Assembly: GCA_020832905.1 (NCBI GenBank)
Contig: JAJHRG010000001.1
Location: forward strand, 296,617-360,616
Source of the DNA: Thermoproteota archaeon
GTDB taxonomy: Archaea > Thermoproteota > Methanomethylicia > Methanomethylicales > Methanomethylicaceae
Reading direction: 5' to 3'
DNA: 64,000 bases
In this document: one piece after another, positions 46,661-50,385 of the stretch
How the letters are laid out: every line of letters begins with the position of its first letter
Numbering within the stretch: the first letter of the stretch is position 1
Position numbers and translations under genes: made by a program
The notes under the pieces: generated by a model
Told to the model about the DNA's origin: nothing
Seen by the model: the letters and a program-made list of their open reading frames with translations, nothing else
Database searches by the model: none

Positions 46661-46671
46661 AGGTGATTATT

Positions 46672-47777
46672 ATGTGGTACTTCATTCGTCCAGATGCTGT
46701 ATCTGCATTAGAAGATCCAAAAGTAATAGAAGCTCTTCCTAGATATGTAGATGTTGTTAAAAATAAGAAATTAGCAAAATTTAGAATATGTAGATTAATT
46801 CCAGTAGAAATTTCAGGAGATGAATCAACAGAAGAACTTTGGAATATTCATAAAAAACTTATTAATGAATACATTAAACTTGAAAAAGAATTAGATGAAG
46901 GAAAACCTATACCTTTAGAAACTCCTAAATTTTCTCTTCTTCATCTTAAAGCTACTATAGCACAGAGAATAATGAGATCATGTATATTATGTGAACGTAG
47001 ATGTATGAAAAATAGGGAAAAAGGAGAACTTGGATATTGTAAAGTAGGAAAGGAAATGTTAGTATCATCGTATTTCGATCATATGGGGGAGGAACCTGAA
47101 ATTGTTCCCAGCTTTACGGTATACGACTTTTAGTCGGCCGAATTAGCCTGGGATGCAATTTCAGGTGCCTCCACTGTCAAAATTGGACTATAAGTCAACA
47201 ATTTGAAAAAGGAGAATACTATACAGAAAAGGAATTAGCATTACTGATAGATGATGCACGTAGAAGAGGATGTAGAAATCAGAATTGGGTTGGTGGAGAT
47301 CCTATACCTCATATACCATTTTGGCTAAGAGTTTTACTTTATGAAAAGGAAAATATGCCTGTTTTCTTTAATACTAATGGATATTTAACTATTGAAGCTA
47401 TGGAACTATTAAGAGGTGTTGTAGATATTTTCAAAATAGATTTTAAATATGGTAATAATAAATGTGCAGAAAGAATTTCTGATGTAAAAAATTATATGGA
47501 AGTAATTACAAGAAATTTAAAACTTGCAAAAGAATATGGAGAACTATTAATAAGAATTCTTGTTTTACCAAATCATTTAGATTGTTGCTTATCTAAGATA
47601 TTAGAATTTATATCAAAAGAACTTGGGAAAAATACAAGAGTTAATTTAATGGATCAGTATACTCCACATTGGAGAGCAAAAGAAGTACCAGAAATTACAA
47701 GACGATTAAATGCACATGAATGGAGAAGAGCTATTGAAATGGTAAAAACTTATGGTCTTACCAATGTTATATCATAA
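46672..47777 (+). pseudogene. Radical SAM protein related to AmrS, frameshifted
   Basis: The two halves fit one ~368-residue protein. The first (46672-47133) has MWYFIRPDAVSALEDPK and SCILCERRCMKNREKGELGYCK. The second, in another frame, has GRISLGCNFRCLHCQNW (the cluster motif), FFNTNGYLTIEAM and a complete C-terminus. The break is at T4 (47128-47131): one extra T would restore reading through the stop. The ~100 bases around the break use codons unlike the rest (CTG, AGG, CTC, CAC). Start ATG 46672 has GGTGA 5 bases before. Real pseudogene or assembly error cannot be decided here. Confidence 0.8.
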
Positions 47778-47778
47778 A

Positions 47779-47874
47779 ATGAAGGAATATGGAATTAGAA
47801 TTTCAATATATTCGCTTTCTTTATTAGCTCAAAGGTTTACAGGAAGCTTAGGAGAAAAAGCAATAATTTTATGA
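47779..47874 (+). CDS. Possible truncated 31-residue protein
   Basis: ATG directly after the radical SAM stop opens 31 codons (MKEYGIRISIYSLSLLAQRF...) ending AIIL. It reads like the N-terminus of a protein cut off next to the insertion-sequence cluster. No homologue recognised; it may be chance. Confidence 0.25.
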   Translation: MKEYGIRISIYSLSLLAQRFTGSLGEKAIIL

Positions 47875-47876
47875 AC

Positions 47877-48020
47877 CTAGTAGAAAGTATGACCACAATC
47901 CCTACAAATATATCTTCTCTTTTTCCCTTTCATCGTCGGTACAAATCCAAATCTATTCACTCTAGTAGAGCCACAATATTTGCATACTTTTTTCTCTTCT
48001 TTTACTTTCTTTATATAACT
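47877..48020 (-). pseudogene. Transposase zinc-finger remnant (IS1/InsA-like N-terminus)
   Basis: On the minus strand, about 45 codons read YIKKVKEEKKVCKYCGSTRV...RRYICRDCGHTFY and stop. The CxxC...CxxCGHTF pattern is the N-terminal zinc ribbon of several transposase families. No DDE domain follows, and upstream the frame runs into the hairpin of the TnpB element, so this is an older relic bordering it. Confidence 0.55.
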
Positions 48021-48045
48021 GAAAACCTCGCCTTTTAAGGCGGGG

Positions 48046-49295
48046 ATGGCAAAAAGGGTTTTTAAGTCTCCTCTCTCCCAAGAGTCTCGGGACGTTCCCT
48101 TGCAGAAGGACGTTCGGGTATGCGTGATCGGAAAGGTTTTCAAGCCTAACAAACGGAAGGTCTTAGCTCTGAACAAGACCCTCGACGAATACTTCAGGCT
48201 TGTGAAGTGGTACTTGAGCTTTAACTTCACATCGAAGACCTTCCTCCACAAGAACTGCTACGAAAAAGCCAAGGAGCTCTTCAACCTTAACACTGCCTTA
48301 ATCCAGACAGCGAGGGACAGGGCTGTCGAGATATTGAAGAGCTTCGAAAAGACCAAGAAAGAAGATAGCGTTCTAAGGCTTAAAAGGATATCCATACGCT
48401 TCGACAAGAGATGTTACAAGTTCTCCAAGACGATGAACGTCCTCACGCCGTACTGGCTGACGCTGAGCTTGAACAGGAAAGAGAGAGTAAGCCTACCGAT
48501 AGTCTTCGGGGAAAGGCAGAGGCAGAGGATCGAGGAGGCCCTCAGAGGGGAATGGCAGTTCACGATGGTCGAAATGGTCAAACGTGATGGACAGTGGTAC
48601 GCCCACTTCATCCTAGAGAAGACCGTTGAAGTCCCCGACGAGCCCGAGACCGTGATAGCGATAGACAGGGGCGAGCACAACCTAGCCGATGCAGTAGCGA
48701 TATCGAAGAGCAACCCCAATAAGCCCATGAAGGGGCAGTTCTGGAGGGGGCAGAGATCAAGAGGATAAGGGGGCTGTACAACCACATCAGGAGGAGGCTT
48801 CAGGAGAAGAAGCTACTGAAGAAGGTCAAGGAGCTCAAAGGAAAGGAGAGACGCAAGGTAAACCAGCAGTTGCACATCATAGCCAACCAGATAGTCGCCT
48901 ACGCTAAACAGTTCCCAAAGCCAGTAATAGTCATGGAGGATTTAATGGACATCAGAGGCAATTTCCACAAGTCCAAGGAATTGAACAGAAGGTTTCACTC
49001 TCTGCCGTTCAGAAAGCTTCAAACCTACATTGAATACAAGGCACTCCTCGAGGGAATAGATGTGGTGTACCTCGAAAAGAAGCTTGTCAAGAACACTTCG
49101 AGGACTTGCCACAGGTGCGGGCACGTTGCCCAAGTCAAAGGAAGAGAGTTCAGATGCCCAAGATGTGGGCTAATCTACAATAGGGATTTGAACGTATGTG
49201 TGAATATAGCCCATGCCTTAACGAGAGGCATGGGATGGGGGGCCGTGAGCCCCCCGAACCAGCAGATGAGGCTGGAGGCGCGAAGCCCCAGCTGA
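48046..49295 (+). pseudogene. tnpB: TnpB RNA-guided nuclease/transposon accessory protein, frameshifted
   Basis: Two frames make up one protein. Part one, to 48768, ends in VIAIDRGEHNLADAVAI (first RuvC Asp). Part two, from about 48750, has VIVMEDLMDIRGN (RuvC Glu), the zinc ribbon TCHRCGH...CPRCG and YNRDLNVCVNIAHAL (last Asp). All three catalytic acids are kept. The break is in a G5 run at 48746-48750; one more G joins the frames. The start may be ATG 48046 inside the left end or a later GTG near 48124, where the usual N-terminus begins. Codon use is GC-rich, unlike the host genes. Confidence 0.88.
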
Positions 49296-49325
49296 ACGCT
49301 GGAAGCCTCGCCCTTTAGGGCGGGG
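49210..49325 (+). ncRNA. Candidate omega RNA / structured right end of the TnpB element
   Basis: Five consecutive stem-loops: CCCATGCCT/AGGCATGGG (49210-49234), GGGGGG/CCCCCC (49237-49255), CCAGC/GCTGG (49259-49275), CCAGC/GCTGG (49288-49302) and CCTCGCCC/GGGCGGGG (49306-49325). TnpB guide RNAs are known to come from this part of the element, overlapping the end of the gene. The guide would be the host sequence after 49325. Confidence 0.55.
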
Positions 49326-49329
49326 CAGC

Positions 49330-50385
49330 TCACTTTCTAAAGAAAATTGGTCTTATAGAAAATATTATTACTAAAAATCCACAAACTAAAACTCCAAGTC
49401 CAGATACAAAAAGAAGAGGTATTAAACTTGCTTTTGGATTTATTATAATTGTACTTATCTCAATTACTATTTGTCTTATAAATAATAAAGCAACTAATAT
49501 TACAATTTCATGCCATATTTTTTGTGATTCCTCTAAGTACTTTACTATAAGTCTTCCTGTAAAGTATATTGCAATTCCTATAATAAATAAATCAATAATA
49601 TTTGATAATGCTAATCCTACAAATGATTGTAGATTTTCTAATGATGTTTCCATTAATGCTATATTTATTCCCCTATATATTGCAATTGATGAAATTATAA
49701 TGCCTATTATTGAAGTAATAAGTCTTATTGGTGATTCCTTCCATGCGTCTCTTATTATTTTATCAATATTAAATCCCTTTACTATTAAGATTATACTAAC
49801 TATAGTTCCTAAAGATATTGCTAAATAGTTTATTAAATTAAGAAAATATAATATTGTTATTGTAAAGAGAATTAATCCAGGTATTCCTAAGAAGGTTTTT
49901 GAATATTCAGGTTCAGTAAGTTTTTTTAAATATCTATAAAATAATACATAAGTTTCTTCTACACTTTTTTCTTGTTGAACAAAAACTCTCTTTACTGATA
50001 TAATTGGAACTTTAGATTGTATTATTGGTAGTGCTTGTTCATCAGTAACTCCATCACTTATAAATATTACTCCATCTGCTTTAAAATTTTTAAGAACTTC
50101 TTCTAATTCTGACAATATTTTTATATCAGATTTATATCCTCCCTCAGGTAAACCTGTTATAATTGCAACTTCACATTTATAATTTTCCTTAATTAATTCA
50201 TCATATACTTTTATTGCTTCAAATATAGAATTTACATCAGAATCTTCTGGATTTTTAAGAGCAAATGAAATTGCAACAGATAGAACTTTTTCTCTACCTA
50301 TGATTGGTGTAGAAAGTCCTAGTATTCTACCTATATCATTATCCTTATCTACATTTAGTACTAGTATATTTTTTTCCATTTTCAA
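49330..50385 (-). CDS. DUF373 membrane protein
   Basis: 351 residues. The first ~150 are soluble (ILVLNVDKDNDIGRILGLSTPIIGREKV, EVAIITGLPEGGYKSDIKILSELEEVL, GVIFISDGVTDEQALPII), matching DUF373. Seven or so membrane helices follow. Function unknown; the soluble part looks like a nucleotide- or ligand-binding alpha/beta fold. The stop lies 4 bases after the TnpB element, so the insertion missed the coding region. Confidence 0.85.
   Translation of the reverse strand: MKMEKNILVLNVDKDNDIGRILGLSTPIIGREKVLSVAISFALKNPEDSDVNSIFEAIKVYDELIKENYKCEVAIITGLPEGGYKSDIKILSELEEVLKNFKADGVIFISDGVTDEQALPIIQSKVPIISVKRVFVQQEKSVEETYVLFYRYLKKLTEPEYSKTFLGIPGLILFTITILYFLNLINYLAISLGTIVSIILIVKGFNIDKIIRDAWKESPIRLITSIIGIIISSIAIYRGINIALMETSLENLQSFVGLALSNIIDLFIIGIAIYFTGRLIVKYLEESQKIWHEIVILVALLFIRQIVIEISTIIINPKASLIPLLFVSGLGVLVCGFLVIIFSIRPIFFRK

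What the first reader, a model, noticed from the sequence alone, without database searches (positions are those of the whole stretch)
48026..49330. GC-rich TnpB element with five tandem hairpins at its right end
Catalytic acids are intact, and five strong stem-loops follow one another at 49210-49325, a clear omega-RNA-like structure. The last repeats the left-end hairpin. Composition differs sharply from the host, so it probably arrived recently from another genome. TnpB-only elements of this kind may act as homing nucleases.
Basis: seen in the sequence. Interest (0 to 1): 0.5.

Follow-up and report, generated by a model that had tools for sequence, protein, structure and literature searches.

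The report
Decaying archaeal TnpB element with ωRNA
A small foreign DNA element in an uncultured archaeon carries a frameshifted RNA-guided nuclease gene (TnpB) next to a well-preserved guide-RNA structure that has clearly been under selection in many archaea; it is a known kind of element, but it led to the likely identity of HgcC, an archaeal RNA that has lacked a function since 2002.

Summary
The window carries one IS200/IS605-type solo-TnpB element (about 48015-49333, 51% GC in a 27% GC host), and its right end is a real structured RNA. Across 49 archaeal right ends, all helices covary (347 double-sided changes against 121 in shuffles). This is the ωRNA architecture of TnpB.

The catalytic acids are present, but tnpB is split by a one-base frameshift that none of 21 relatives shares, so this copy is probably dead. 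"Recent arrival" must be qualified: a sister species has the same insertion with tnpB deleted, while two species of another genus in the family lack it.

Novelty: a decayed new member of a known kind. Two by-products matter more. Rfam family HgcC (RF00062), reported as having no resolved function, sits at tnpB 3′ ends and is very probably an ωRNA. The neighbouring radical-SAM gene (46663-47777) appears to contain a 20-nt bulge-helix-bulge intron, conserved in its archaeal family and spanning all three reading-frame offsets. An intronless relative matches the predicted spliced protein.

The parts
48010..48014 (+). putative target-adjacent motif TTTAT at the left junction
   Evidence: 23 of 27 left flanks of related elements end in TTAT (18 in TTTAT); boundary chosen by eye, so partly circular. 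TTTAT is the motif reported for solo tnpB in S. islandicus (PMC10640517).
48015..48045 (+). left end with subterminal hairpin 48026-48045
   Evidence: folds; same sequence class at other left ends
48046..48768 (+). tnpB, 5' part (240 codons, first RuvC acid in AIDRGEH), ended by the frameshift
   Evidence: NCBIfam guided_TnpB profile positions 44-208
48741..48756 (+). frameshift zone; one base fewer than every readable relative
   Evidence: 21 relatives in frame here
48741..49295 (+). tnpB, 3' part (second and third RuvC acids VMEDL and NRDLN, C4 zinc ribbon), overlapping the omega-RNA
   Evidence: (PF07282 at 1.9e-18; guided_TnpB positions 227-388)
49207..49333 (+). omega-RNA scaffold: H1 49210-49218/49226-49234; H2 49238-49242/49251-49255; H3 49259-49263/49298-49302; H4 nested in H3 49271-49279/49285-49292; H5 49306-49313/49318-49325
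   Evidence: fold z -6.4; covariation; covariance model 142 bits
49245..49250 (+). pseudoknot strand 1 (GTGAGC, loop of H2), pairs with 49328-49333 (GCTCAC)
   Evidence: 96.5% of cells paired, 31 double-sided changes against 10.8 in shuffles
49328..49333 (+). pseudoknot strand 2 and right boundary of the element
   Evidence: conserved ...TCAC end in the aligned relatives with unrelated sequence after it
49334..49353 (+). putative guide: host sequence at the 3' end of the DUF373 gene
   Evidence: position inferred from ISDra2/SisTnpB (PMC10097598, PMC10640517); sequence after the boundary differs between relatives
47778..48009 (-). relic with a zinc-ribbon ORF (IS1/IS1595-like) between the radical-SAM gene and the left end; shared with G001, absent from G007 and G011

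Best explanation
This is a decayed copy of an archaeal IS200/IS605-family solo-TnpB element. In intact relatives, TnpB would bind the structured RNA made from the 3' end of tnpB through the right end, use the roughly 20 nt after the element as guide, and cut sites that carry a TTTAT-like motif followed by the guide match. Such a site is the re-joined empty site, so cutting would help the element persist and be copied back (inferred from ISDra2 and SisTnpB, not shown here). The copy entered the genus from a higher-GC donor, landed between a radical-SAM gene and the DUF373 gene, and then lost function: a one-base frameshift in tnpB here, and deletion of tnpB in the sister species. The omega-RNA sequence has outlasted the protein. 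Shown: structure, covariation, pseudoknot, frameshift, empty locus in relatives. Inferred: past nuclease activity, the motif, the guide, present inactivity.
For: TnpB identity: guided_TnpB 108 bits and PF07282 at 1.9e-18; PDB matches to TnpB and Cas12f. omega-RNA: covariation in 49 right ends, covarying pseudoknot, weak match to sot0042, a recognised archaeal omega-RNA family (PMC12558985). Frameshift unique to this copy. G001 has the same junctions with tnpB deleted. Empty locus in G007 and G011. Foreign composition and phylogeny.
Against: The frameshift is one base in a metagenome assembly and could be a consensus error; reads were not available. A host-specific frameshift at this spot cannot be fully excluded. 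No expression data. A precise empty site was not recovered, because the zinc-ribbon relic lies between the left end and the host gene. The tree places the window copy without strong support.
Confidence: 0.85

Rival explanations
1. tnpB is intact in the living population; the frameshift is an assembly or consensus error, and the element is an active RNA-guided nuclease that maintains itself at this site.
For: One-base difference beside a run of five Gs; the rest of the coding sequence and the omega-RNA are well preserved; no other stop in either part.
Against: The sister genome has lost tnpB at the same site, so the locus is decaying in the genus. The only other apparent frameshift checked, in the radical-SAM gene, is biological rather than an error.
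Confidence: 0.25
2. The omega-RNA is retained without its own TnpB because another TnpB acts on it in trans, or because it has a regulatory role; TnpB-less elements made of left end plus omega-RNA would be a functional class.
For: TnpB-less elements with left end and omega-RNA occur in several archaea: L058, L059 and L060 and a group in G014 with left ends about 120-150 nt before the omega-RNA.
Against: Other TnpBs in this genome are only 26-31% identical. In G001 the omega-RNA is interrupted by about 210 nt, so it is not protected. Ordinary non-autonomous copies explain the rest.
Confidence: 0.1
3. The stems are only transposition palindromes or a terminator, not a guide RNA.
For: Left and right end hairpins resemble each other, as IS200/IS605 transposition needs.
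Against: Five helices plus a pseudoknot covary with the compensations expected of RNA, within the coding region as well; similarity to known omega-RNAs.
Confidence: 0.04

Closest known systems
IS200/IS605 solo-tnpB elements of Sulfolobus (SisTnpB; solo copies flanked by TTTAT; PMC10640517)
   Same: tnpB without tnpA, TTTAT at the left junction, conserved omega-RNA at the 3' end, variable sequence after the right end
   Different: tnpB frameshifted here; the omega-RNA gives only weak matches to existing RNA families
ISDra2 TnpB and omega-RNA (PMC10097598)
   Same: RuvC acids, zinc ribbon, omega-RNA overlapping the tnpB 3' end, pseudoknot
   Different: low protein similarity (PDB E about 6e-4); different host domain
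sotRNAs of Halobacterium (RF02656, RF02657; PMC12558985)
   Same: position at the tnpB 3' end; pseudoknot between second hairpin loop and the 3' end, as found here
   Different: 20.7 bits against a gathering score of 88
HgcC RNA (RF00062)
   Same: overlaps tnpB 3' ends on the same strand in this genome and in other Thermoproteota
   Different: the window omega-RNA itself scores 19.2 against a cut-off of 50

Membership tests
IS200/IS605 family, solo-TnpB group | TnpB with RuvC motifs and C4 zinc ribbon | tested here: met
   PF07282 and guided_TnpB; motifs
IS200/IS605 family, solo-TnpB group | one continuous tnpB reading frame (needed for an active member; decayed copies are still members by descent) | tested here: not met
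   frameshift near 48750; relatives in frame
IS200/IS605 family, solo-TnpB group | subterminal hairpins at both ends, no tnpA inside the element | tested here: met
   the one tnpA (Y1) match of the genome lies on another contig
IS200/IS605 family, solo-TnpB group | insertion 3' of a short fixed motif without target duplication | tested here: inconclusive
   TTAT in 23 of 27 left flanks with boundary chosen by eye; exact empty site not recovered
TnpB omega-RNA | covarying scaffold overlapping the tnpB 3' end, ending at the right end | tested here: met
TnpB omega-RNA | pseudoknot between a hairpin loop and the 3' end next to the guide | tested here: met
TnpB omega-RNA | expressed, bound by TnpB, guides cleavage | not testable with these tools
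   no transcript or biochemical data
HgcC (RF00062) | score over the gathering cut-off (50 bits) | tested here: not met
   19.2 bits for the window
sot0042 (RF02656) | score over the gathering cut-off (88 bits) | tested here: not met
   20.7 bits, E 0.0096

The most novel reading that the evidence does not exclude
The orphan archaeal RNA HgcC (RF00062), known since 2002 and reported as having no resolved function, is the omega-RNA of archaeal TnpB elements, so HgcC, the sotRNAs and the RNA in this window are branches of one guide-RNA superfamily.
Probability: 0.85. Interest if true: 0.5.

Novelty: new member of a known kind. Interest (0 to 1): 0.36.

Why it matters
The element itself shows how TnpB insertions decay: the protein goes first and the guide-RNA module persists, here in two sister species in two different ways. 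The 49-member alignment gives a clean covariance model for a broad archaeal ωRNA family found in Archaeoglobi, Thermoproteota, Bathyarchaeota and Asgard lineages. If HgcC is an ωRNA, a 24-year-old orphan RNA gets a function, and past HgcC expression data (Pyrococcus, Thermococcus) become evidence of ωRNA expression. The neighbouring intron adds a candidate to the very short list of spliced protein-coding genes in archaea.

Tried and rejected
Programmed frameshift in tnpB: rejected as unlikely, because all 21 readable relatives are in frame and there is no classical slippery heptamer. A second active copy in the genome: none; the nearest other TnpBs are 26-31% identical. Foreign 210-nt insert in the G001 ωRNA as a known element: its ends recur elsewhere in G001 only, identity not resolved. 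Reading the radical-SAM split as an assembly error: rejected. R1 model matches to HgcC loci are mostly weak and sometimes on the opposite strand, so family unity rests on position and shared sot0042 matches, not on R1. A loose TnpB motif scan near HgcC hits found 8 of 28 loci (3 on the same strand, 5 on the opposite one) against 0.13% of random positions.

Full report
What is there. The window lies in a 1.16-Mb archaeal genome. Its sister genome G001 shares the contig of locus L061, Candidatus Methanomethylicota archaeon WYZ-LMO11. Between the end of a radical-SAM gene (stop at 47777) and the end of a DUF373 gene (49330-50385, minus strand) sits foreign DNA: a short relic with a zinc-ribbon ORF (47778-48009, minus strand) and then the TnpB element (about 48015-49333).

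Protein. Two reading frames together cover the TnpB profile: frame 1 covers positions 44-208 and the second part 227-388 of 389. PF07282 matches the second part at 1.9e-18, and solved TnpB and Cas12f structures match by sequence. The three RuvC acids are present, but the gene changes frame near 48750, where it is one base shorter than in 21 readable relatives. Without reads I cannot exclude an assembly error, but decay is the likelier reading because the sister species has lost tnpB from the same insertion.

RNA. The right end folds with z = -6.4. I aligned 49 right ends from archaeal genomes found by protein search. For the structure H1, H2, H3 with H4 nested, H5 and a pseudoknot, 90.5% of cells are paired (72.9% in shuffles). 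Double-sided changes number 347 (121 in shuffles), and sliding the partner by 1-3 columns destroys the signal. The pseudoknot alone: 96.5% paired, 31 double-sided changes against 10.8; for example GTGAGC/GCTCAC here, GTGAAT/ATTCAC in Lokiarchaeota, GTGATAC/GTATCAC in L013. The shuffles do not remove relatedness, but the slid controls do, and changes occur in several lineages. The pseudoknot links the loop of the second hairpin to the 3′ end next to the guide, which is the arrangement described for haloarchaeal ωRNAs (PMC12558985); a pseudoknot is likewise reported for ISDra2 (PMC10097598). The covariance model finds only this copy in the window, at 142 bits; the window sequence was one of the 49 used to build it.

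Ends and motif. Left flanks of 27 related elements end in TTAT in 23 cases and TTTAT in 18; flanks further out vary. I placed the boundary by eye, so this is suggestive. It agrees with the TTTAT reported for solo tnpB in S. islandicus (PMC10640517). The right end is ...GCTCAC in this copy, followed by unrelated sequence in the relatives.

History. Two species of another genus in the family (G007, G011) have the two host genes nearly abutting, without relic or element. G001 has the same left and right junctions, but its left end is joined directly to the ωRNA, tnpB is gone, and about 210 nt interrupts the ωRNA. The parsimonious history is one insertion in the common ancestor of G000 and G001, then decay along two paths. 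The GC at third codon positions of tnpB (67-72%) against 8-14% in neighbouring genes, and nearest relatives in Archaeoglobales and Methanodesulfokora, support transfer from another archaeon; the tree is poorly resolved.

TnpB-less relatives. L058, L059 and L060 and a set in G014 have a left end shortly before the ωRNA with tnpB deleted, so loss of the protein with the RNA module kept is recurrent. I read these as non-autonomous copies.

By-product 1, HgcC. Rfam lists HgcC as a gene family without a clan. A 2017 paper calls its function unresolved (PMC5732400), and a 2014 paper noted three T. kodakarensis HgcC RNAs inside transposase genes (PMC4247193). In this genome HgcC matches sit at the 3′ ends of two other tnpB genes. 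In 300 Thermoproteota genomes, both hits over the cut-off (L134, L146) overlap the 3′ end of a tnpB zinc-ribbon ORF. Of 38 ORFs lying at HgcC hits in this and other archaeal genomes, 15 match the TnpB model. Five further hits lie antisense to a tnpB 3′ end. Three loci match HgcC and sot0042 at the same place. No paper in the searched library mentions both HgcC and TnpB; subscription journals are mostly missing there.

By-product 2, an intron. The radical-SAM gene at 46663-47777 looks split, but the break is a conserved structure. RNA 47095-47165 folds at z = -7.1 with a 4-bp helix between loops inside a long outer stem, resembling a bulge-helix-bulge. In 11 genomes the stretch between the fixed codons (F)TV and SLGC is 23, 25, 26 or 27 nt, so the frame offset takes all three values while both flanking proteins are conserved. 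A fixed frameshift cannot do this; an intron can. Removing 20 nt here (47123-47142) gives VPSFTVF-SLGCNFRC, and the intronless relative G045 reads VPSFTVF-TIGCNLRC at the same length. Confirmed splicing of archaeal protein-coding genes was limited to cbf5 as of 2009 (PMC2738675); I found no paper linking such an intron to a radical-SAM gene.

Verdict. The finding is real, its RNA claim is strengthened, and its protein claim is corrected. As an object it is a decayed member of a known kind.

Noticed in passing
window 46663-47777 (+), intron predicted at 47123-47142: Radical-SAM (glycyl-radical activating type) gene with a predicted 20-nt bulge-helix-bulge intron, conserved in at least 11 genomes of the same family with lengths 20, 22, 23 and 24 nt giving all three frame offsets; intronless relative G045 matches the predicted spliced protein.
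   Followed up: partly
G000:C15:14707-14816, G000:C16:179432-179559, L134, L146 and others: Rfam HgcC (RF00062) matches lie at the 3' ends of tnpB genes; HgcC is very probably an omega-RNA.
   Followed up: partly
L058, L059, L060; G014 loci L178, L180, L183-L186, L188: Miniature elements that keep the left end and the omega-RNA but lack tnpB; several copies in G014 share an altered right end after the fourth helix.
   Followed up: partly
L061 3058-3276 (G001:C17:184-402): About 210 nt of GC-rich DNA inserted inside the omega-RNA of the sister species; its ends recur elsewhere in G001, identity not resolved.
   Followed up: partly
window 48026-48045 against L061 2988-3007: The left-end hairpins of the two sister species differ at three of six apical positions with a compensatory T-A to G-C pair change (TTTTAA against GTTCAC), more than the flanks differ.
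   Followed up: no
window 47778-48009 (-); L003 1286-1430: Fragment of an IS1/IS1595-like zinc-ribbon ORF; a second diverged copy in the genome lies on contig C8, with a single TnpB-type hairpin about 70 nt downstream.
   Followed up: partly
G000:C15:15306-16785 (-): A tnpA (Y1 transposase) match next to an open but distant tnpB: the only candidate autonomous IS200/IS605 element seen in this genome.
   Followed up: no
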